Shown in pieces: positions 7,735-62,993 of a stretch of 64,000 bases of DNA. The notes beneath the pieces are model-generated. The model ran no database searches. It was not told the DNA's origin and was given only the letters and a program-made list of their open reading frames with translations. The position numbers and the translations under genes were made by a program. This stretch comes from Candidatus Delongbacteria bacterium (lineage in GTDB: Bacteria > UBA4055), in assembly GCA_016937995.1 (NCBI GenBank), contig JAFGVM010000064.1, positions 42,997 through 106,996 on the forward strand. The letters are read 5' to 3'. The stretch's first letter is position 1, and each line of letters begins with the position of its first letter.

Positions 7735-10700
7735 ATGTCTCAACTGAACGGAGCATTCCCGAAGCATATTCATTCGCCTGAGTATTATATGAATAAACAG
7801 TTCATGTTCATTGATATATCAGGGTTTACACCATTGTGTGATAAATTTATAAGTGAGAGCAGTTACGGAGCAGAAAAGATCGGTGATCTGGTGAACACAG
7901 TTTTTAATCCAATTATAGATTTTGTATTTGAAAAAGGTGGGGATGTTATTTCTTTTGCAGGTGATGCATTGTTCGTTGCAGTTGAAAAGAAATCGGTCAA
8001 AGCGGTACAGGATATGTCTCAGAAACTTATAAAAGAACAGACCATAGATAAAAGTCTTGCCATTACAATAGATATGCTGAAAGATGAATACTACCCGAAT
8101 ATTATAAAGTCAGCTGAAGGAAGTTCATTTAGCTACTACCCACAGAAAGATAAAAATGATCTATTGAAAAATACTTTCCCTGACGAGATATATGAGATCT
8201 ATCAAAGTAATTTCAGAGGTGAACTTAGAGCTGTACCTGTTTTCTTTATTCATATTTCAGAAAAATATTCTATAAACAAAATAAGACCGTTGCTTGAATT
8301 CATTACAGAGAAATCAAAAGAGAATTCTGTTTATATCAATAAAATAGAATATCTCGACAAAGGCTGGATGATATTGCTTTCAGCGGGATCACCTGTATAT
8401 TCCTCCGAAGCACCTGTCAAAATATATGAACTGTTATCCAAATTCTCCAAGAAAGCTAAAACTTATAATATCCCTGTGCAGATAGGTGGAACTCTTCAAA
8501 GAGGTTACTGCGGTATCATCGGTAATGAAAAGAGATGGGAATTTACTTTCTTAGGGTCAAATGTCAACCTTGCAGCCAGGATCGCCTTTTCTTCAGAAAA
8601 TTACAAGATCTCCTGTGATGAGTCATTTGCATATTCTTCTCAAAACCTTTTGAAGTCTGAGTCTATAGGTATAAAGACTTATAAAGGAGTAGGTGAAAGA
8701 GAAATCTTTGAAATCACGGGTAAGATCAATGATACAAAAAATATTTTCGTAGGCAGGGAGAAAGAGGTACTATCATGCTTGAATTTCTTTTCAGGTGACA
8801 GAAGAGCTTTTGTACTTTTGAACGGTCCTTCAGGAATTGGAAAAACAGTACTTGCAGAACATATAATTCAATCTTTGGGTTATAAGTTTCTTATAAGATT
8901 AAAAGGTGTTTTCGGAAATGAATCAGCTTTCTCCTTATTCGATAATTTCTGTGATAAAAATTCGGGAGCAGCTGAAATATTCAAAAAATTCAAAGCTATA
9001 AAGCAACCAACTCTAATTTATATAGATGACCTGCATTTTGCCGATGACAGCAGTTTATTTATGTTTCACAGAATGATCAACGAAGGTAACCCGTTCGTTA
9101 ATTTCATAGCTACAACGATAGGAAGGGAAAAAGTTAAGATCACACCTTTGTCTTACTATGAATCTTTGATAATTGATCTGCAGCCGTTCGACCCGAAAGA
9201 TATTCAGCATATAACGAAGATGATATCAGGAATTAATATAACATTGAAGACCAGTAAAATGCTGCACAGATCAACTCAGGGAAATCCTTTATTCATTACT
9301 AAAATACTGCCTTATATAACAAAAGATATTGAAAATTCAGGAAAAGTTCCCTATTCACTTCAGGAAATAATCTTGATGAAATTAAATGAAATTCCTGATA
9401 AAGGACCGGAATTCATTGATGGGGGCTCTGTTTATGGTGATATTTTTGATCATGGTGTGGTTAGAGAAGTAATAAATCTGAAGGATAAAATATTTAGAGA
9501 CATTGTTTCAAAGGCGGAGAACGAAGGATTAGTAAGAAGATCTCTTTCCCGTGATGAGATGGAGTTCTCGAACACAATTATAAGAGAAATTATCTATGAA
9601 AGACTTTTAAAAAAGAAGATCGATTTTTTCAGGATAAAAATAGCAGAAGCTATTGTTGACTCAAAGACTAAAGATCTGAAAAAATTATATAAAGCAGTGA
9701 CAATGTACTTTTCTGCAAATGATAATAGAGCTCTACCTTTAGCTCTTAAACTTGTTGAAGAATTTAAAAGAACAAAAGATCATGGTACTTTAAGAAGTAT
9801 CGTTCAAAGATCTTTTGAGTTCATTAAAAAGAATAACTTATATTCAAAGGCTTATGATTTTATTGAGTTGTTTTCAAGATCTTCTCAATTTGTTATTGGT
9901 GCAAAACTAACAACAATACTCGAAGAAATAGCCTTCAAGATAACTGATTGGAGAAATAATGAAAAATTACTTCTCTATATTGCAAGATTAGTTTTTGAGA
10001 TACAGTTCAAAGCACCCGAGGAACTTCTGAAAAAATATCTGGAATTGAAAGGTGAAGATAAACATTATCTTTGGACAAAAGTAAAGACCTGTGCTTATGT
10101 AATACCGCAAAACGAAGCTGTGAAGATATTTTACGATCTGAAAAATAAATTCGAAGGCAATGAAAGGGTAGAGTTCTATATAGATTTTGTGGGTTATGCA
10201 TTCTTTATCACAGGGAATGTGGACATGGAAAAAGAAGGTATAAAGGAATTGCAGAGACTCGAATCATCTATGCCTGTTTATTTAAAAGTATCTTACTTGT
10301 TCATAAAGAACAGCATAGCTATTCACAGGGACGATATGACTGAATCAAAAAAATGTCTTGATGAAATTACAAGTTATAATAAAAAAGATGTGGATCTTAG
10401 TGATTCTTTCTCGATATACAATGATTATTCGATCCTTTATCTGAATTTGGCCTATGAAAATTTTGATAAAGAATATATTAAGAGATCTTTAAAGTATTCC
10501 ATTAAAGCTGTTAAGGCAATGACAGACCTCCAAATAGAAGCTGATCTGCCTTTGATGACGACCAATCTTGCAAGTTACTATATGACCAGTGGTTATGTGA
10601 AGAAGGCGGAAAGAACTTATCTTGAAGGCTTGTATTATGGACTAAATATCGATCATCCTGTTGAGGTACTTTATACAAAATCTAGGATTGCTTTTCAAAC

Positions 10701-11355
10701 TTCTGCATCAGGAGCTTATGCTCTTTCGATTAAGTTATCAGATGAAGTTATTCAGGGAAAGATCACAGATATCCTATCCGGTTCATATACCATCAAATAT
10801 CTATATGGTGGTAAAAAGGAGAATGATCTCAAAACAGCCAAAAAATATGCTCTGGAGATAGCTAAATTCGGATCTGCAAAATGTTACTGGGAGATGTCAA
10901 GATTAATGACCCAGCAGGCATTTGCTGATAATGATATCAGTGAAATGAAAAAGATCAGAAGAGACTTGATGAAATGGAGAAAATATACTCAAAGGGCGGG
11001 AAATCTGTTTGCAAATGAAACTACGATCAAAATACTTGGATTGATGAGTGGAATTAAGACAGAAGCTGTAAAAGTAAGAGACAGATTGTCAAAACTTGAA
11101 AAACTGAATGTTAATTTCAGTCTTCAAGGTAAATGCTGCTATGCTTTAGGACTTCATCATAAAGATATTGATCTTCTCAAAAAAGCAAAGAAATATGCTT
11201 TAAAGATGAGAGAATATCCGTTCGTTTTAAGGATCGAAAAAGAACTATACAGGATCACACAAGATAATTACTGGTCCCGAAGGATGAAAATATCAGAGAA
11301 GAAGCTTAAAGAAGTGAATAAGATAAAGAGTATTGAGGAATTCTTTGGATACTAA
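7735..11355 (+). CDS. Soluble-adenylyl-cyclase-like protein: two cyclase domains, ATPase, TPR-like tail
   Basis: 1206 aa from the ATG at 7735, chosen because GAGGAA sits 7 bases upstream; an in-frame TTG lies at 7672 inside a hairpin. Seen: cyclase domain C1 (FMFIDISGFT with D27; GGDVISFAGDAL with D77), the two metal aspartates. Cyclase domain C2 has DKGW with K209, and FTFLGSNVNLAAR with T271, N278 and R282. These match, in spacing, the ATP-base and transition-state residues of human sAC (Lys334, Thr405, Asn412, Arg416, from memory). Next come an AAA/NACHT-like ATPase (Walker A GPSGIGKT at about 364, Walker B LIYIDDLHF at about 427) and about 600 helical residues. No signal peptide or TM segment. 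Inferred product: cAMP. It is flanked by unrelated genes. Confidence 0.88.
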   Translation: MSQLNGAFPKHIHSPEYYMNKQFMFIDISGFTPLCDKFISESSYGAEKIGDLVNTVFNPIIDFVFEKGGDVISFAGDALFVAVEKKSVKAVQDMSQKLIKEQTIDKSLAITIDMLKDEYYPNIIKSAEGSSFSYYPQKDKNDLLKNTFPDEIYEIYQSNFRGELRAVPVFFIHISEKYSINKIRPLLEFITEKSKENSVYINKIEYLDKGWMILLSAGSPVYSSEAPVKIYELLSKFSKKAKTYNIPVQIGGTLQRGYCGIIGNEKRWEFTFLGSNVNLAARIAFSSENYKISCDESFAYSSQNLLKSESIGIKTYKGVGEREIFEITGKINDTKNIFVGREKEVLSCLNFFSGDRRAFVLLNGPSGIGKTVLAEHIIQSLGYKFLIRLKGVFGNESAFSLFDNFCDKNSGAAEIFKKFKAIKQPTLIYIDDLHFADDSSLFMFHRMINEGNPFVNFIATTIGREKVKITPLSYYESLIIDLQPFDPKDIQHITKMISGINITLKTSKMLHRSTQGNPLFITKILPYITKDIENSGKVPYSLQEIILMKLNEIPDKGPEFIDGGSVYGDIFDHGVVREVINLKDKIFRDIVSKAENEGLVRRSLSRDEMEFSNTIIREIIYERLLKKKIDFFRIKIAEAIVDSKTKDLKKLYKAVTMYFSANDNRALPLALKLVEEFKRTKDHGTLRSIVQRSFEFIKKNNLYSKAYDFIELFSRSSQFVIGAKLTTILEEIAFKITDWRNNEKLLLYIARLVFEIQFKAPEELLKKYLELKGEDKHYLWTKVKTCAYVIPQNEAVKIFYDLKNKFEGNERVEFYIDFVGYAFFITGNVDMEKEGIKELQRLESSMPVYLKVSYLFIKNSIAIHRDDMTESKKCLDEITSYNKKDVDLSDSFSIYNDYSILYLNLAYENFDKEYIKRSLKYSIKAVKAMTDLQIEADLPLMTTNLASYYMTSGYVKKAERTYLEGLYYGLNIDHPVEVLYTKSRIAFQTSASGAYALSIKLSDEVIQGKITDILSGSYTIKYLYGGKKENDLKTAKKYALEIAKFGSAKCYWEMSRLMTQQAFADNDISEMKKIRRDLMKWRKYTQRAGNLFANETTIKILGLMSGIKTEAVKVRDRLSKLEKLNVNFSLQGKCCYALGLHHKDIDLLKKAKKYALKMREYPFVLRIEKELYRITQDNYWSRRMKISEKKLKEVNKIKSIEEFFGY

Positions 11356-54530: not shown

Positions 54531-54551
54531 ACTTTAACTCATATCTCATCA
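54531..54551. repeat. Heptamer repeat array 4, right half
   Basis: On the minus strand: TGATGAG, ATATGAG, TTAAAGT. The first three bases are the stop codon of the UvrA-like gene. Its GATATGAGTTAAAGT is an inverted near-copy of GGTATGAGGTATAAAGT in the left half. Confidence 0.7.
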
Positions 54552-57500
54552 CTTGTTTATCAGGTAACCACCTTCTTCACCAGATCCATGTCCGAGTTCA
54601 ATACTTTTTCCTGCACAAGAGATCACATCGCGGTCATGCTCAGTGATAACAATTGTATTGTCTTTTACGAGTTTTTCAAATGAATGTAGAAGTATTTCAA
54701 TATCTTTGAGGTCAAGACCTGCAGATGGTTCATCTATGACAATGAAATTATCGTTAGGATTCTTAAGCAGTTCTTTGATGATAACCAGCCGTTTTCTCTG
54801 CCACACCGAGAGAGTCGTAAATTTTCTGTTCAGAGAAATATTCTTTACTCCGAGGTCTTTGAAGTATTTATTCAACTTGGTCAGCTGAGTATTATTAATT
54901 ATTCTTGAGAGTTCTTCTGTAGGTAGATCAAGCAGTTCTGAAATATTCTTATCAGAGAGTTTTTGTTCAAGTATCTCAGGTTTGTACTTCTGTCCTTCGC
55001 AGACTGAGCAGACCTTATCAGTTTCTCTTAAGAAATCAAGATTCCCTTTGATATAACCTTTTCCCTGACAGGCAGGGCAATAGCTGCTTGAAGAAGTGAA
55101 GACAGCTTTCTTAACTTTGTTGGATTTAGCCAGCTTGTCCATGATAATATTATTCATTTCAAAGAAAGAGCCTACAGTGATTGAGGAATAATGATCATCA
55201 GCTATAATTACATTATCGAATTCGCCTTCAACTGACCTGCAGCCTGTGATATTGTTCTTTAATGACTCTGCAAGAACTTTAAAGACAAGAGTTGATTTTC
55301 CACTTCCGCATGGTCCGTGAACTATATTTAAAGTATTATAGGAGAAGTCCACATCGATATCCTTCAAATTGTGCAGATAAGCACCTTTAACTGAGAAAGT
55401 TCTCTCTCCATGAGGAAATACTCGTTTATGCGGAGAATTGATGCTCTTGTAGGTTTTAGCGATATTATCGTATTTTATCTTTCCGTCTTCAAGCTCAACA
55501 ACATTATCTGCTGCTGAAACAAATCTTTCTTTAGGATCAGATATTATAACTGTGTTGCCGAGGTCTTTGAGTTCTTTTAGCGCTTCAGTGATCAGATGTT
55601 CTTCTTTATAATAAAGTCCGTTTGCAGGTTCATCAAGTATGTACATAATATCAGTGATCTTTTCTTCTGCAAGCATAGCCAGTCTGAGCCTCTGCTTTTC
55701 ACCCGATGAAAGAGTGTTATATGATCTGTTTAAAGAGATATAACCAAGACTGAATTTGGAGAGTCTGTTCAGTTTATTCAGTATCTTAGATGTTAGAGAT
55801 TCACTGTTTTTGAGCTTCAAGTCTTCAAAGAAAGCTATTGAATGCTTAACGCTATTTTCAGTGAGATCGCTTATGGACAGGTTGTTTATCTTATAGCTGA
55901 GTGCCGTTTCATTTAGCCGTTTTCCGCCACAGACCGGACATTCTTTCTCAACCATCAGAGTTTCAAAGTTCTTCTTCTTTAAATTATTCAGATTGATCAG
56001 ATAATCTTCTTTGATCAGATTCGCAAAGCCTTTCCAAACCGTTTTGAACTTGTGAACTCCTTTACGGTTAGCTCTCTCGTAAGCCCAGTTGACATCGTAT
56101 CCAATATTTCCGGTACCGTTAAAAATGATATCAAGTTCTTTCTCTGAGTAATCATGAAGTTTTTTCTCCGGTACGATGTTATGTTGTTCAAACACGGTGT
56201 ACAAGGTTGCCAGATATTGACCGGTAATTTCAGAGAAGAATTTCCCGGGCTTGCTTCCGTTCATGGCGCCTGCTTCGATCGAAAGATCAAAGTCCGCCAC
56301 TCTGTTAATGTCAACTTCGTCTGTTATTCCTCTTCCGCTGCAGTTCTGACAGGCACCGTTTATGTGCAGGAATGAAAACAATGAATTATTCTTCTGATGC
56401 TCCGGCAGAACTTTGTCAGCAGTGCTGAACCGTGAGTAAAGCAATCTGTAAAGTTCGTAGATCCCGCTTACCTGTGCAAATGATATTCTATCAGCCCTAT
56501 TTTTTTCCTGAGATAGCGATATCGCAGGACTCAGATTTCGGATCGACTTGAATTCACCTTTTGAAGAAGTGCCTATGAACTGCCTCGCATAAGCTGAAAG
56601 TGATGACAGATATAAATTATTCGCTTCATTGAAAAGAGTATCGTTGATCAGGCTTGTTTTACCCGCTCCTTCACCGCCTTTAACGAGAGTGATCTTATTC
56701 TTTTCTATCTCAAGGTTTATATTTTTCAAATTATTTGTAGAAACATCTTCAAGTATGATCTTATCTGAGATAATATTATCTATTTGTCGAATTTTATTGT
56801 CAAGATCGAATATTTTTGCGGTCAGTGATCTTTTGCAGTTAAGAATACCCTTGACTAAACCCTGATACAGAACTTCACCGCCTTTATCTCCGGCTCCGGG
56901 ACCTAGATCAACAATATGGTCTGACTGGGAAATGAAATACGCATCATGCTCAATAGCTATGATAGTATTGCCGACCTTACATATAGCATCAAGGTTCTTC
57001 AGCAGTATTTTTGTATCGAACATTGAAAGACCGGTCGTAGGTTCATCAAGAAGTATGAGGTTGTTCTTAGCATTTGTTTCGAGATAGGCAGAGAGTTTTA
57101 ACCTCTTAGCTTCACCGCCAGACAAAGTTGAAGTCGGCTGACCGAGCTTCAGATATCCCAGTCCGAGCCTGTTTAAAATATCAAGCTTTGAGAAAATTTT
57201 CTTTTCATGCCTGAAGAATTCGCAAGCTTCAGAAATCTCAAGTTCAAGCACATCATAAATGCTTTTTCCGTTGAATTTAATTTTAAGGACATCATCGTGG
57301 AATCTTTTGCTGTTGCAGCTGCTGCAGGTCAGTTTAATATTGTCAAGGAAGTGCATTGTGATCTCAGTTTCACCTTTTCCGAGACATTCTTCACATCTGC
57401 CAGTTCCTGTGTTGAATGAGAAAGCTGTTGCATGCATAGAGTCAGGGAGTTTTGAGTATAGATTCCGTATATCGTCAAAAATACCGGTATAGGTTGCAGC

Positions 57501-59114
57501 ATTTGATCTTGAGTTCTTTCCCGGCTGCTTCGCATCGATCTCTACAACATTCTTGAATTTTTTAGCGACCACTCCGCTGACAAGACTTGATTTCCCTGCT
57601 CCGGATACTCCTGTGACCACATTGAGACTGTTAAGCCTAAAATCAGCATCAATATTCTTCAGATTATTTAAATTTGCACTCTTGACTGAGAAATATTCTG
57701 CTTTGTCTGATGTAGGTTCTTTGAAAGATATTTTACTGTTCAACTCTTTATATGTTACGCTGTCTTTAGCATTGAAGTCGGAAGCTTTTCCGCAGAATAA
57801 TAATTTACCACCGAGATAACCTGCTCCAGGACCGATATCAATAATATGATCTGCTGCTAAAATAGTTTCCTTATCATGCTCAACGACAATGACTGAATTC
57901 CCTCTGCTGACAAGTTCTCTGAAGACTGAAATGAGCTTAAAATTGTCAGTTCCGTGAAGACCAATGGAAGGTTCATCGAAAATATACATTATGCCTGACA
58001 TTTTACTGTCGAGTACGGCAGCAATTCTTAATCTCTGAGATTCGCCGCCGGATAGGGTATTCGATCTTCTTTCAGGAGTAAGATAACCTAATCCCAGACT
58101 GATCAGAACTTCGCACTTTTTGAGAATAGCTGAGATTATCTCTTTCTGAACTTCATCAGTTGAATTTATAGCTGTGAAAAAATCATTTAACTCTGAGAAT
58201 GTTCTGCCTGTGTAATATGGAAAGTTCTTGTTATCGAAAGTAACCTGCAAAGACTCCTTTTTCAATCCTGAACCGTTACAATGAGAACAGGTCTTTGAGG
58301 AAACGAATTTAAGTATATTTTTATTCCGATCTCGCTTAAGTATCTCTGACATTATAGGAATAATACCTTTATAGTATCCTTCATCTCTCGGTTTTGCAGT
58401 AATCCCCACCCATTTCATCCTCGATTCAAGAGTATGCTTGCCAAAGGCTATTTTTATCTTATCACTACCGTGAAAGATAACGTTTCTCTGATAATCAGTT
58501 AGTTCATTGAAAGGGATATCTACATTGAATCCTTCACTTTCACATACCTGGTTAAGCACATCAATTGTTACCTGAGAATAAATGGTATATCCATCTTTCA
58601 AAGTAATTTTGAGAGCTCTGTCCCTGAGTGACTTTGTTTCATCTTCGATAAGAAGTTTTTCCTCGATATATTCCTCTTCTCCAAGGCCGTTACAATTCGG
58701 GCATTGACCTACATGATTATTGAATGAGAACATTCCCCGGGAGAGTTTGATACTTTCAGGGCTTTTACCGCATCTTGCGAACAATAGTCGTAACAGGTCT
58801 GTTATGCCGCTCAGAGTTCCTGCAGTAGATCTCAGGTCACCTGTAATAGTTTTCTGCTTGATCGATACAACAGGTCTTATTCCTGATATTTCTGCATCAA
58901 CTTCACCGGTCTTAGCAAGATACTGCCTGGCATAAACAGAAAAAGATTCAAAGAATCGTTTGTTCGCTTCCTTTTCAATTATATCAGCAACAAGGCTTGA
59001 TTTTCCTGATCCTGAAACACCTGTGATGCATACGAATTTGTTGTGCGGGATTTCTACCGAGAAATCTTTTAGATTGTGAATATTTGCGTTTTTTATTTTA
59101 AGATATTTTGCCAT
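54549..59114 (-). CDS. Double-length UvrA paralogue with four ATPase modules
   Basis: 1521 aa against ~940 for UvrA. Seen: four ABC modules. Walker A: GVSGSGKS (about 32), GVSGAGKS (about 501), GGEGAGKT (about 812), GPCGSGKS (about 1266). Signatures: LSGGESQR (about 351), LSGGEAKR (about 662), LSSGEKQR (about 1133), LSVWQRKR (about 1433). The last is degenerate. UvrA-type zinc modules: CPNCNGLG, CSHCNGSG, CEECLGKG, CQNCSGRG, CPVCGGKR, CPACQGKG, CSVCEGQK. Known: UvrA is a homodimer; class II paralogues link to drug tolerance. Inferred: a single-chain pseudo-dimer outside standard excision repair. Downstream of a tet-like GTPase. Confidence 0.85.
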   Translation of the reverse strand: MAKYLKIKNANIHNLKDFSVEIPHNKFVCITGVSGSGKSSLVADIIEKEANKRFFESFSVYARQYLAKTGEVDAEISGIRPVVSIKQKTITGDLRSTAGTLSGITDLLRLLFARCGKSPESIKLSRGMFSFNNHVGQCPNCNGLGEEEYIEEKLLIEDETKSLRDRALKITLKDGYTIYSQVTIDVLNQVCESEGFNVDIPFNELTDYQRNVIFHGSDKIKIAFGKHTLESRMKWVGITAKPRDEGYYKGIIPIMSEILKRDRNKNILKFVSSKTCSHCNGSGLKKESLQVTFDNKNFPYYTGRTFSELNDFFTAINSTDEVQKEIISAILKKCEVLISLGLGYLTPERRSNTLSGGESQRLRIAAVLDSKMSGIMYIFDEPSIGLHGTDNFKLISVFRELVSRGNSVIVVEHDKETILAADHIIDIGPGAGYLGGKLLFCGKASDFNAKDSVTYKELNSKISFKEPTSDKAEYFSVKSANLNNLKNIDADFRLNSLNVVTGVSGAGKSSLVSGVVAKKFKNVVEIDAKQPGKNSRSNAATYTGIFDDIRNLYSKLPDSMHATAFSFNTGTGRCEECLGKGETEITMHFLDNIKLTCSSCNSKRFHDDVLKIKFNGKSIYDVLELEISEACEFFRHEKKIFSKLDILNRLGLGYLKLGQPTSTLSGGEAKRLKLSAYLETNAKNNLILLDEPTTGLSMFDTKILLKNLDAICKVGNTIIAIEHDAYFISQSDHIVDLGPGAGDKGGEVLYQGLVKGILNCKRSLTAKIFDLDNKIRQIDNIISDKIILEDVSTNNLKNINLEIEKNKITLVKGGEGAGKTSLINDTLFNEANNLYLSSLSAYARQFIGTSSKGEFKSIRNLSPAISLSQEKNRADRISFAQVSGIYELYRLLYSRFSTADKVLPEHQKNNSLFSFLHINGACQNCSGRGITDEVDINRVADFDLSIEAGAMNGSKPGKFFSEITGQYLATLYTVFEQHNIVPEKKLHDYSEKELDIIFNGTGNIGYDVNWAYERANRKGVHKFKTVWKGFANLIKEDYLINLNNLKKKNFETLMVEKECPVCGGKRLNETALSYKINNLSISDLTENSVKHSIAFFEDLKLKNSESLTSKILNKLNRLSKFSLGYISLNRSYNTLSSGEKQRLRLAMLAEEKITDIMYILDEPANGLYYKEEHLITEALKELKDLGNTVIISDPKERFVSAADNVVELEDGKIKYDNIAKTYKSINSPHKRVFPHGERTFSVKGAYLHNLKDIDVDFSYNTLNIVHGPCGSGKSTLVFKVLAESLKNNITGCRSVEGEFDNVIIADDHYSSITVGSFFEMNNIIMDKLAKSNKVKKAVFTSSSSYCPACQGKGYIKGNLDFLRETDKVCSVCEGQKYKPEILEQKLSDKNISELLDLPTEELSRIINNTQLTKLNKYFKDLGVKNISLNRKFTTLSVWQRKRLVIIKELLKNPNDNFIVIDEPSAGLDLKDIEILLHSFEKLVKDNTIVITEHDRDVISCAGKSIELGHGSGEEGGYLINK

Positions 59115-59115
59115 A

Positions 59116-59558
59116 TTATTCTTTTATAAATTTCCACTTTTTCCCACAATTATAACAGTAATTATATTTCTTAAATAACGGAAGAATTATTCTCAAAAAA
59201 AACAACATATAGGTGAATTTAGATCCATTTGAATGAACGATATATTATTTGATTTACAAAAAGGACATATGTAAATAGTAGTATTTTTTTTGGTGATAAT
59301 TTGTTCAATTTTTTCTTTATTATCATTTTCTTTATCCGGTATAAAACCTACTTCTTTCAATATTTCTTTAGCTTTATTAAAATCTTTTTCAGTTACTTGT
59401 AATTTAACTCCACCCACTGCATTTGAATAAAAATTATTGGCTTGTATTGTCATTTCATCTTTTAGAAAAGTAGGGATTTCATGAGAGTCTAAAAGTGCTT
59501 TAACAGGATGAGCTTCATGAGGGTATGTAAATATCAATATCGTTTTCCAGTTTGTCAT
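59116..59558 (-). pseudogene. DUF2007 protein with C-terminal zinc ribbon, frameshifted
   Basis: Open frame 59193-59558 gives 121 aa: DUF2007 domain (about 1-80, TILIFTYPHEAHPVKALLDSHEIPTFLKDE...GGVKLQVTEKDFNKAKEIL) plus YICPFCKSNN, the first half of a zinc ribbon. The frame stops in an eight-base A-run (59195-59202). One extra base there restores a frame running to 59116 that ends YCYNCGKKWKF, the missing second half (CxxC), two bases before the UvrA-like start. Real mutation, sequencing error and programmed slippage are all possible. Start overlaps the relic 3' end of a tet-like gene (TGA/ATG). Confidence 0.75.
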
Positions 59559-59584
59559 TTTATTGCGCCCCGGTGCTTTAATAT
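59554..59584. repeat. Direct repeat copy 1: relic 3' end of tet-like gene
   Basis: 31 bp. Minus-strand reading gives ILKHRGAIK-stop, the exact C-terminus of the tet-like GTPase, with its stop overlapping the DUF2007 start. Copy 2 is at 61058-61088; 28 of 31 bases agree. Confidence 0.85.
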
Positions 59585-59593
59585 GAATTTAGA

Positions 59594-60910
59594 TTATTTA
59601 AATTTAATGTCATGAATATTTGAAACAGCGTACGCAGGAATAGACATGATTTTATCATAGATCCCATAATTTTCTCCTGAGAACCTTATTCCCAAATCGA
59701 GATCTCGTTCCTTTAGAAACAGATGAAGACTTTGCATAGCTCCCCTTGTTCCTGCTTTAACTTCTATAGGAATTATTTTCCCGGCAATAGAGATGATATA
59801 ATCAATTTCAGCATTACTGCCTCTCATTTCTCTGTGCCAGTAAAAGATCTCAGGTCTGACTCTTGGATTTCCTGACGAAATTAACTCATTATAAACATAT
59901 AATTCTGCTAATGCACCTTTGTTTATCAGACTATTGTAATCTTGTACTACAAAAACTGACAGGTCAAGTTTTGAAATTCTCTGATATATTCCTGTGTCAA
60001 AAATCGCGACTTTAAATTTATTGTTTTTTATTTGTGCCCCTAAAGGTAACCCTCTTGCTGATGTGTGAAATATCTTATATGCAATTCCTGCTTGTACTAA
60101 CAGTTCAAGAGCATTTTTATATGTTGTATATTTATCGTTGGAAATATTAGAATATTTGAATTTTCCACCTGCCTGAAAAGCAATAGATTTGAAAACTTCA
60201 TCCAGTATCAGAGGAGATGTTCTTCCCTTGTATTTTGCAAAGTCATCTATATAACCCATTATTATATTATCAAGAATTTTCTGGCATTGCAATATATCAT
60301 TGGTTCTTACATAGGTTTTAACTACTTCAGGCATACCTCCAATTATTTGAAAAACTTTCAGATGGTCTAAAAGTCTGTTATGAAACACATCATCAATAGG
60401 ATTATCAACTCCGGATTGCTTAATTAAAACACTCAAATCTTTTGATCCAACAGCCTGTAGGTATTCAAAAAAGTTCATAGGATAAATGAACACAGATTCA
60501 ATCCTGCCAACTCCATAAGAGGGGATTTCAGCTAGAGCAAATTCCAGTAAAGAGCCGGCTGCGATAACATGTAATTCCGGTAGTTTCTCATAAAAGAATC
60601 TTAAAGCCCTTATCGCATCAGGATTTGCCTGAATTTCATCAAAAAAAAGAAGTGTTTTACCAGGAATAATGGAATGCTGATAATACAGAGAAAGTTTTTT
60701 AATAATTTCCTGTGGATTGAGTGAAGCTGTAAAAAAATTATGGATATCCCTGTCTTCTTCCAAATTAACTTCAAGGAAATCGTTGAACTTTTTTCCCAGT
60801 TCCCGAATACTAAAAGTTTTTCCTACCTGTCTCGCTCCTCGAACCAATAAGACTTTTCTGTCTTTCCGATCTTTCCAATCGAGTAAATATTTTTCAATAT
60901 TTCTGATCAT
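59594..60910 (-). CDS. AAA ATPase with DUF4143 domain
   Basis: 438 aa from ATG 60910, chosen for its GAGG site; a longer frame reaches 60952. Seen: Walker A RGARQVGKTFSI (about 23-34), Walker B LFFDEIQANPDAIRALRFFYEKLPELHVIAAGSLLEFAL, arginine-finger-like GSLLEFA region, and the C-terminal DUF4143 domain with a nuclease-like ending EIDYIISIAGKIIPIEVKAGTRGAM (PD-(D/E)xK-like). Known as frequently mobile or variable genes with no clear function. Here it sits alone between two copies of a gene end, so it looks like cargo of an inserted cassette. Confidence 0.85.
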   Translation of the reverse strand: MIRNIEKYLLDWKDRKDRKVLLVRGARQVGKTFSIRELGKKFNDFLEVNLEEDRDIHNFFTASLNPQEIIKKLSLYYQHSIIPGKTLLFFDEIQANPDAIRALRFFYEKLPELHVIAAGSLLEFALAEIPSYGVGRIESVFIYPMNFFEYLQAVGSKDLSVLIKQSGVDNPIDDVFHNRLLDHLKVFQIIGGMPEVVKTYVRTNDILQCQKILDNIIMGYIDDFAKYKGRTSPLILDEVFKSIAFQAGGKFKYSNISNDKYTTYKNALELLVQAGIAYKIFHTSARGLPLGAQIKNNKFKVAIFDTGIYQRISKLDLSVFVVQDYNSLINKGALAELYVYNELISSGNPRVRPEIFYWHREMRGSNAEIDYIISIAGKIIPIEVKAGTRGAMQSLHLFLKERDLDLGIRFSGENYGIYDKIMSIPAYAVSNIHDIKFK

Positions 60911-60957
60911 TAAACACCTCATTGTATGATGACATGAATAATATAAGTACAAACCGA

Positions 60958-61056
60958 AGAAAAGTCAAGGCATATAACCGATTAAAACGCAGAAAAGTCA
61001 AGGCAGACAAACAATCAATTCAAAGAATAGTCAAGGCAAAAAAACGAATTAATTAG
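60958..61056. repeat. Three tandem 33-bp units
   Basis: Units start at 60958, 60991 and 61024, each opening with AGAAAAGTCAAGGCA (the third has one change) followed by 18 variable A-rich bases. They end at the junction with direct repeat copy 2. Confidence 0.85.
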
Positions 61057-61057
61057 G

Positions 61058-61088
61058 GTCACTTTATCGCACCCCGGTGCTTTAATAT
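61058..61088. repeat. Direct repeat copy 2: 3' end of tet-like gene
   Basis: 31 bp forming the last codons and stop of the tet-like gene. It differs from copy 1 (59554-59584) only at three third-codon positions. Confidence 0.85.
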
Positions 61089-62993
61089 ATACTTCGATCT
61101 GTCTTTAGGGCTGACACCTCTGTAAGGAATGGTCTTTCCTAGCTCGAGCGGGACTTCCTGATAACCGTGGAAGTGAGTAATATACTTTCCTTTGCCGCCT
61201 GTGATTGAATTAAGTGTATTGAGATAATCCAAGGATGTTGCGACTGGGATCTTTCCATCTATGACAATTTTCCCATCAACATTCTCAGGCGTACCAATCT
61301 CAGCTCTGATAGCTATAAGACTGCTGATGATCTTGCCGGAAGATTCTTCAGGAGCTGATATTTTAAACGACAGCACTGGTTCGAGCAATTTGCAGCCTGT
61401 ATTAATTAGTCCGTTCATCATCGCAAGTTTCGTAGCAAGAATAAAATCTCCGGGACGGGAATGAATTACATGATCTTCTTCACCGATCAGAGTTATTTTC
61501 AGATCAGTGACCTGCCAGCCGTAGATACCCTGTTGAAGTGCTTCATCTATTGTAGCCTCTATCTCATTCTGATACTTTGCGGCTATTTTATCAACTCCTA
61601 CTTTTGATTCATAGACAACTCCGCTTCCCCGTTCTAAAGGCTCAATTTCAAATCTGACAACAGCCCAGCACGGTTTAGGCATTGTATACTCATCGTAGCC
61701 TTCGCCTTTTTGCGTCGGAGTTTCTTTATAAATGACGATCGGATCTCCGAAGCTAACACTCAAATTAAATCTCTGCCTGAATACTGTCTCAAGTATCTCA
61801 AGCTGGATCTTTCCCATGATCTTAATATGAAGTTGTCTCTCATCCTTAAGCCAAACATAGTTGAGTGCCGGATCTTCCTCCGAAAGCTCTTTCACTGCAG
61901 TAACAAGTGCTGAAAGATCAGAGTCTTTTTCCGGTTCAAGTTTTACGGTAAGCAAAGGATCGCTGAGACCTGTATGTTTACATAGTTCAATTCTCTTCAA
62001 GAGTTCCGGATCAGAACCGATCATATCACCCGCAATGACATTTTCAAGACCGCAGATCATAGCAGTATCACCTGACTGTAGGATATCTAAAGTCTCAAGC
62101 TTGCCTGAATAGGATTTTTTTATCTGAGTAACTTTATTTTCTTTTCCCTGTGAACCATAAGTAACAAGATCTCTGTTCCTGATCGAGCCACTGAAAAGCC
62201 TTACACTTGCCATTTTACCAAATTGAGCGTCATATTCAAGCTTGTAAACTATACCAGAAAGTTCATTGCTTTTCGCGGATGCTTCCGGCATTATAGTCGT
62301 GATATCATCGAGTAATTCTTTAATACCTTCGTTAAGCTTTGCTGAGCCTGACAGAACAGGAAATAAAATCCTGCTGTGAATACTTTTTTTTAAGGCTGTA
62401 TTTAGCTCAGAGAAAGAAATATTCTCTTCATTTAAGTATTTCTCTATCAGAATATCATCAGCTGAAGAAATTTGTTCAGTAATTTCATCGGAGATATCGT
62501 CAGTCTCTGAAAAATCCTGCAAAACAATAATATTCTGAGATAATTCTTTCTTTATTTCTTCTGTGACTGCATCAATATCAGCACCGGCACGATCGGTTTT
62601 ATTTATAAAAATTAAAACAGGTATATTAAGCTTTACCAATGCAGACCAGAGATTTTCAGTATGTGCCTGAACACCTTCTACTGCTGAAATAACTAATACA
62701 GCGCAATCTAAGGCTAATAATGATCGATCAACTTCTGATGAAAAATCGATGTGCCCCGGAGTATCAATTATATTTATCGTTGTATTATTCCATTCCAGAG
62801 AAACTGAAGCTGAACGGACTGAGATACCACGCTCTTTCTCAACTTCCATTGAATCTGTTACGGAAGTACCTTTATCAACTGAACCTGCCGTTTTTATCCT
62901 GCCTGAAAGTTCAAGCATCCTTTCTGTAATAGTGGTTTTCCCTGCATCAACATGCGCAAGGATACCTATGTTAATGAATTTGTTTTTTTTCAT
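61059..62993 (-). CDS. TetM/ribosomal-protection-like translational GTPase
   Basis: 644 aa, TetM-size and EF-G-like. Seen: G1 AHVDAGKTT, G2 region RGISVRSASVSL, G3 DTPGHIDF, G4 NKTD, then domain II, III, IV and V: RLFSGSIRNRDLVTYG, LKIMGKIQLEILETVFRQRF, GFxxAxxx-like DGKIPVATSLDYLNTLNSITGGKGKYITHFHGY. Known: this family removes tetracycline from the ribosome. Resistance cannot be claimed from sequence alone, but the family assignment is strong. Cotranscribed with an upstream DUF5683-like gene; its 3' end is one copy of a direct repeat. Confidence 0.88.
   Translation of the reverse strand: MKKNKFINIGILAHVDAGKTTITERMLELSGRIKTAGSVDKGTSVTDSMEVEKERGISVRSASVSLEWNNTTINIIDTPGHIDFSSEVDRSLLALDCAVLVISAVEGVQAHTENLWSALVKLNIPVLIFINKTDRAGADIDAVTEEIKKELSQNIIVLQDFSETDDISDEITEQISSADDILIEKYLNEENISFSELNTALKKSIHSRILFPVLSGSAKLNEGIKELLDDITTIMPEASAKSNELSGIVYKLEYDAQFGKMASVRLFSGSIRNRDLVTYGSQGKENKVTQIKKSYSGKLETLDILQSGDTAMICGLENVIAGDMIGSDPELLKRIELCKHTGLSDPLLTVKLEPEKDSDLSALVTAVKELSEEDPALNYVWLKDERQLHIKIMGKIQLEILETVFRQRFNLSVSFGDPIVIYKETPTQKGEGYDEYTMPKPCWAVVRFEIEPLERGSGVVYESKVGVDKIAAKYQNEIEATIDEALQQGIYGWQVTDLKITLIGEEDHVIHSRPGDFILATKLAMMNGLINTGCKLLEPVLSFKISAPEESSGKIISSLIAIRAEIGTPENVDGKIVIDGKIPVATSLDYLNTLNSITGGKGKYITHFHGYQEVPLELGKTIPYRGVSPKDRSKYILKHRGAIK

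What the first reader, a model, noticed from the sequence alone, without database searches (positions are those of the whole stretch)
59554..61088. ATPase cassette inserted at a gene 3' end, between two synonymous copies of that end
31-bp direct repeats flank a DUF4143 ATPase gene and three 33-bp units. Each repeat encodes ILKHRGAIK-stop, the C-terminus of the tet-like GTPase. They differ at three sites, all third codon positions (GGT/GGC, GCG/GCA, AAG/AAA). A simple target duplication would be identical or differ at random. Synonymous-only change suggests both copies were under coding selection, as when an element carries its own gene end and rebuilds the target on integration. The relic copy keeps the ancestral TGA/ATG overlap with DUF2007, so the original operon was tet-like then DUF2007.
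Basis: partly seen in the sequence, partly recalled or inferred. Interest (0 to 1): 0.85.

Follow-up and report, generated by a model that had tools for sequence, protein, structure and literature searches.

The report
Defence-candidate gene inserted at gene end
A single-gene anti-phage defence candidate (an ATPase joined to a nuclease) with its own regulatory repeats has slipped in at the tail of another gene and left a spare, slightly different copy of that tail behind, and related genes in other bacteria show the same regulatory spacing and sometimes similar scars.

Summary
The repeat is real and longer than reported. 41 bp (59554-59594 and 61058-61098) match, and 12 codons plus stop read SKFILKHRGAIK* against the working end SKYILKHRGAIK*. 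Of 7 changes in these 39 nt, 6 are synonymous and one is Tyr/Phe (P about 0.001 for random change). The copies therefore look like two diverged alleles. The ATPase is PADLOC's phage-defence candidate PDC-S01 (AAA_14-DUF4143; PD-(D/E)XK motif). The three 33-bp units are not cassette ends. 33 of 61 relatives, from several phyla, carry upstream direct repeats spaced exactly 32/33 (or 64/66) bp with unrelated sequences; 0 of 99 control genes do. I read this as a self-operator array. The mobile unit is array plus ORF. Seven of 59 relatives, the window included, have direct repeats flanking that unit (2 of 132 control genes; none inverted), several at gene ends; a Delongbacteria homologue is followed by a decayed end of the same GTPase. 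Sister genomes hold other defence-like genes at this site. Best reading: one-sided homologous recombination with a donor carrying GTPase end plus cassette, leaving the recipient's old end as relic. Whether the ATPase-nuclease drives its own insertion remains open.

The parts
61059..62993 (-). tet-like/EF-G-like GTPase whose 3' end is duplicated
   Evidence: best NCBIfam tet_protect, below its cut-off: 568 of 775 bits
61058..61098 (-). working copy of the gene end, ...SKYILKHRGAIK*
60950..61052 (-). array of three direct 33-bp units (TGCCTTGACTWTTC), inferred operator/promoter array of the ATPase
   Evidence: (motif only here in the genome)
60940..60968 (-). promoter-like TTGACT-17-TATATT, its -35 box inside the last unit
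   Evidence: 10 of 12 matches, but shuffles give as many: 1 found, 1.0 expected
59594..60910 (-). AAA_14-DUF4143 ATPase with PD-(D/E)XK motif (phage-defence candidate PDC-S01); an upstream TTG start at 60952 is also open
59554..59594 (-). relic of a diverged GTPase end, SKFILKHRGAIK*, directly after the ATPase stop; its TGA overlaps the DUF2007 start
59193..59558 (-). DUF2007 protein (start ATG overlaps the relic stop)
54549..59114 (-). UvrA-like protein, directly after the GTPase in relative G011

Best explanation
A one-gene defence-type cassette (array of three 33-bp self-operators plus the AAA+/PD-(D/E)XK gene PDC-S01) was brought in on DNA from a diverged relative. The incoming piece carried a GTPase gene end followed by the cassette. 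One side recombined by homology in the GTPase gene, replacing its last codons or more. The other side, just after the ATPase stop, was joined without homology to the recipient's old GTPase end. That old end, still holding the ribosome-binding site and the stop/start overlap of DUF2007, is the relic. The spot is a hot spot for such cargo. The 33-bp units are the ATPase's own binding/promoter array and had no part in the joining. Shown here: the diverged coding copies, the array rule, the hot spot, the second GTPase-end relic in G008 and the enrichment of flanking repeats. Inferred: the donor, the one-sided join and the self-binding.
For: 7 differences in 39 nt, 6 synonymous plus Tyr/Phe, half of the third positions changed, which is the level between species of this genus (third-position identity 58% to G001, 63% to G002) and not that of a fresh duplication. 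Outside a 17-bp identical core the relic differs from the working end at every variable site, while the working end shares TAT, GGT and AAG-TGA with sister species G001/G002 and the relic shares Phe, GGC and AAATGA with insertion-free G011. Sister genomes carry Fic (SoFic-like) and HEPN genes at the same place. G008's 76% identical cassette, with the same three units, is followed at its stop by a decayed GTPase end (score 20 against 7.3 +- 1.4). Flanking direct repeats occur in 7/59 relatives against 2/132 control genes, P=0.004, 0/59 inverted. Copies have different lengths (24-88 bp in the clear cases) and 0-20% divergence, as expected for by-products of recombination and not for a fixed target duplication. 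Array rule. Published precedent for one-sided insertion leaving relic gene pieces: PMC5361080.
Against: No genome with the empty site or the donor was found: only two sister species exist in the collections, and both have other insertions. Identity of the GTPase to G001/G002 shows no visible breakpoint along the gene. Two shared synonymous bases (TTA, CGG) link relic and working end of this genome against G001/G002. The repeated precise start of the duplicated piece at the ATPase stop codon (window, L245, L248, L164) is more regular than a random illegitimate join predicts.
Confidence: 0.5

Rival explanations
1. Site-specific integration at the gene 3' end, as with islands in tRNA or protein-gene ends: the element carries a gene-end copy, crossover in the 17-bp identical core ATATTAAAGCACCGGGG, gene end rebuilt by the element.
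For: Same gene end used in G000 and G008; perfect 17-bp core flanked by mismatches on both sides; the working ends in all three insertion-bearing sister genomes share GGTGCGATAAAGTGA.
Against: No recombinase in 1.5 kb. Relatives sit at unrelated sites, most without repeats. A 17-base run without mismatch is expected by chance in 12% of cases. The Bacteroides insertion replaced a hipA operon.
Confidence: 0.15
2. The ATPase-nuclease moves itself: it recognises its own array, cuts targets (often gene ends), and repair copies array plus ORF into the cut, leaving a direct repeat of variable length whose spare copy then drifts.
For: Minimal unit is array plus ORF with no other gene. The duplicated piece includes or touches the ATPase stop in the window, L245, L248 and L164. 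L248 has an exact 24-bp repeat including the upstream gene's stop. PD-(D/E)XK motif. The array motif is found only next to its own gene in this genome.
Against: No demonstrated cutting. Synonymous-only drift of a free spare copy is unlikely (P about 0.001). Most copies lack repeats.
Confidence: 0.2
3. Simple in-place duplication of the gene end with the cassette, then neutral drift of the spare copy.
For: Short repeat next to the insertion; exact repeat in L248.
Against: Only one conservative amino-acid change among 7 differences; the relic shares states with G011 and not with sister working ends.
Confidence: 0.08
4. Assembly chimera: two strains' contigs joined at the ATPase stop.
For: The genome is fragmented (99 contigs) and sister records are metagenome-assembled; the relic looks like another strain's allele.
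Against: No shared sequence at the join that an assembler could use; the same architecture occurs in independent genomes.
Confidence: 0.05

Closest known systems
PDC-S01, PADLOC phage-defence candidate (AAA ATPase fused to PD-(D/E)XK)
   Same: Full-length match E 2e-136 to the PADLOC models; the literature describes PDC-S01 as an ATPase fused to PD-(D/E)XK, fourth most common defence system in prokaryotes, untested (PMC12988326)
   Different: The 32/33-bp upstream array and the flanking gene-end repeats are not mentioned in the papers found
Homology-facilitated illegitimate recombination, e.g. Vibrio T6SS effector-immunity modules that leave orphan 3' genes (PMC5361080)
   Same: New module in, old 3' piece kept downstream; one side homologous, the other not
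   Different: Here the remnant is a 41-bp gene end, and the cargo is a defence-candidate gene
SCC-type and tRNA/gene-end genomic islands (own knowledge)
   Same: Insertion at a gene 3' end between two copies that differ at third codon positions
   Different: No recombinase; duplication length varies and is often absent
Free-standing homing endonuclease genes (own knowledge)
   Same: Single nuclease-type gene at gene junctions, possible copying by repair
   Different: AAA+ ATPase with operator array; no cleavage shown; relic duplication

Membership tests
PDC-S01 | full-length match to PADLOC PDC-S01 models | tested here: met
   residues 1-434 against models PDLC04786/04788, E 2e-136 and 3e-136
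PDC-S01 | AAA_14 ATPase plus DUF4143 with PD-(D/E)XK motif | tested here: met
   Pfam; motif AEIDYIISIAGKIIPIEVK and equivalents found in about 50 of 59 proteins with one regular expression
PDC-S01 | protects against phage | not testable with these tools
   no experiment; literature says untested for most candidates
Gene-end integrating island (tyrosine/serine recombinase) | encodes a recombinase | tested here: not met
   only the ATPase ORF lies between the copies
Gene-end integrating island (tyrosine/serine recombinase) | identical core at both junctions in independent insertions | tested here: inconclusive
   G000 and G008 share the GTPase end; other relatives have unrelated sites
Homology-facilitated illegitimate recombination | one junction homologous, the other not; two alleles present | tested here: inconclusive
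   allelic divergence met; donor and empty site not found
Transposon/IS | fixed-length target duplication and terminal inverted repeats | tested here: not met
   flanking repeats 24-88 bp in the clear cases or absent; inverted flanks in 0/59

The most novel reading that the evidence does not exclude
PDC-S01 ATPase-nucleases are minimal one-gene mobile elements. Each recognises its own 32/33-bp-phased array and inserts array plus ORF at gene junctions by cut-and-copy repair, capturing or duplicating the neighbouring gene end, so that one of the commonest 'defence' genes of prokaryotes is (also) a homing-like selfish gene.
Probability: 0.2. Interest if true: 0.85.

Novelty: new variant of a known kind. 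Interest (0 to 1): 0.58.

Why it matters
PDC-S01 is counted as the fourth most common defence system in prokaryotes, yet nobody knows what it does or how it spreads (PMC12988326). A repeat spacing of 32/33 bp that is kept while the repeat sequence changes completely points to a self-binding, helically phased assembly of the ATPase on its own promoter, which can be tested at once by footprinting. The gene-end scars give a handle on how such single genes enter operons without breaking them.

Tried and rejected
(1) Close strains without the cassette: only three genomes of the genus are held, and all carry something at the site. (2) The pre-DUF2007 spacers of G001/G002 as decayed relics: not significant (p over 0.1). 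(3) Array sequence following protein phylogeny: similarity only above about 60% protein identity, Mantel rho 0.08, p 0.13, so the spacing is conserved and not the sequence. (4) The array in shorter (~390 aa) DUF4143 proteins: mostly absent. (5) Empty sites in plasmids: Bacteroides gave a replacement of hipA, Proteus only a single leftover palindrome. (6) PDB by sequence: no hit; viral contigs: none.

Full report
Observation. The window belongs to a Candidatus Delongbacteria genome (its sisters are Delongbacteria records WTAK01 and JAQIDB01). On the minus strand the order is GTPase, three 33-bp units, AAA_14-DUF4143 ATPase, relic, DUF2007, UvrA-like. The direct repeat is 41 bp. In the frame of the GTPase it covers 12 codons and the stop: working copy SKYILKHRGAIK*, relic SKFILKHRGAIK*. 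Seven of 39 nt differ, six at third positions. Random change would leave at most one amino-acid change with probability 0.0004-0.0014. It is the only non-paralogous pair of this kind in 64 kb.

Origin of the two copies. Third positions differ in half of the codons, as between species of this genus (58-63% identity), so the copies are allele-like and not a fresh duplication. The relic shares Phe, GGC and AAA-TGA with G011, where the GTPase stop overlaps the uvrA start and nothing is inserted. The working end shares TAT, GGT and AAG-TGA with G001 and G002, which carry a Fic and a HEPN gene at the same place. Two synonymous bases inside the 17-bp identical core speak the other way. A 17-base run without mismatch has a 12% chance, so the core alone does not prove a crossover there.

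A second relic. G008, another genus, has a 76% identical ATPase with the same three units. Its stop codon is followed by CGAAGCGCATTTCAATGAACAGAGGCGCGATAAA (a few bases on), which aligns to the GTPase end of G011 with score 20 against 7.3 +- 1.4 in shuffles; no other of 25 ATPase tails scores above 8. No tet-like GTPase was found in G008. The next gene there is a conserved family gene that in G011 lies just after GTPase-uvrA. So this ATPase subfamily has been at this gene end twice, or once long ago.

The 33-bp units. Upstream regions of 61 ATPases of the long (about 430-460 aa) clade were scanned for direct repeats at lags 15-80. Thirty-three exceed z=4, and all 33 have lag 32, 33, 64 or 66. 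None of 99 other genes exceeds z=4. The genes come from Delongbacteria and several other phyla, including plasmids of Chlamydiota, Bacteroidota, Fusobacteriota, Pseudomonadota and Bacillota. Not all 61 are independent, but the repeat sequences are mostly unrelated (GCCTTGACTTTTC, TTGCATTTTTCCAATGGTATT, CACTTTTTTGGAGAT, TTTTCGGAAGGAGT, GCAAAAAGTC, TTTTATGCGCATAAAA and others). In 11 of 33 arrays the last unit overlaps the spacer of a promoter-like TTGNNN-(16-18)-TATATT-type site. In this genome the motif occurs only at these three sites. I infer a helically phased operator array bound by the ATPase itself. That is inference; no binding was measured.

What moves. In Bacteroides plasmids array plus ORF replaced part of a hipBA operon, with the right junction 5 bp after the ATPase stop. 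In seven of 59 cases (the window among them; L115 involves a piece of a neighbouring ATPase gene) direct repeats flank array plus ORF; none are inverted; 1 of 59 in crossed pairs; 2 of 132 control genes, one of them the Fic gene of the same hot spot; P=0.004. L248: 24 bp exact, starting with the stop codon of the upstream gene. L245: 35 bp at the start of a VanZ-like gene whose ATG overlaps the ATPase stop (VanZ named by eye, not by search). L161: the gene end YKLKT* with TTA/CTA and TAA/TAG (weak, z 4.0). L164 lies below the threshold (z 2.8), but there the ATPase ends LATAQKATMTTI*, an in-frame copy of the upstream gene end LDMAQKATTTTV*. Most relatives show nothing.

Interpretation. The ATPase is PDC-S01, an untested but very common defence candidate, an ATPase fused to PD-(D/E)XK (PMC12988326). 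The best-supported account is arrival on donor DNA by recombination that was homologous on the GTPase side and illegitimate after the ATPase stop, as proposed for Vibrio effector modules that leave orphan 3' pieces (PMC5361080). The regular start of the duplicated piece at the ATPase stop and the minimal unit keep a self-mobilising, nuclease-driven model alive. Its idea of an element that carries and rebuilds gene ends is possible but unproven, and its 33-bp units have another meaning.

Noticed in passing
L033 (G002:C174) 2160-2200 and 1290-1320: After the DUF2007 stop lies a copy of the 3' end of the downstream GNAT gene (ATGATGCAAAGATACTGGATC against ...TATTGGATC), one synonymous change: a second gene-end relic in the same hot spot, upstream of the full gene.
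   Followed up: partly
L033 (G002:C174) 1981-2027: Two 33-bp units of the PDC-S01 array stand upstream of a GNAT gene with no ATPase: likely remnant of a deleted cassette.
   Followed up: partly
L032 (G001:C335) 9250-10800: The SoFic-like gene is flanked by about 40-bp AT-rich palindromic repeats (AAATACTA...TTAGTATTT); a like element precedes the GNAT gene in G002.
   Followed up: no
L115 (G008:C105): Two different PDC-S01 cassettes in tandem followed by a deletion derivative that keeps the array and the gene end of the first type.
   Followed up: partly
L211 (Proteus plasmid) about 1941-1990: A single operator-like palindrome ACACTTTTACGCGTAAAAGTGT remains at the place where an Acinetobacter plasmid carries the ATPase cassette.
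   Followed up: partly
window 61059-62993 and 54549-59114: A tet-like ribosomal-protection-type GTPase and a UvrA-like protein form a patchy pair in Delongbacteria (GTPase found in 4 of 13 family genomes).
   Followed up: partly
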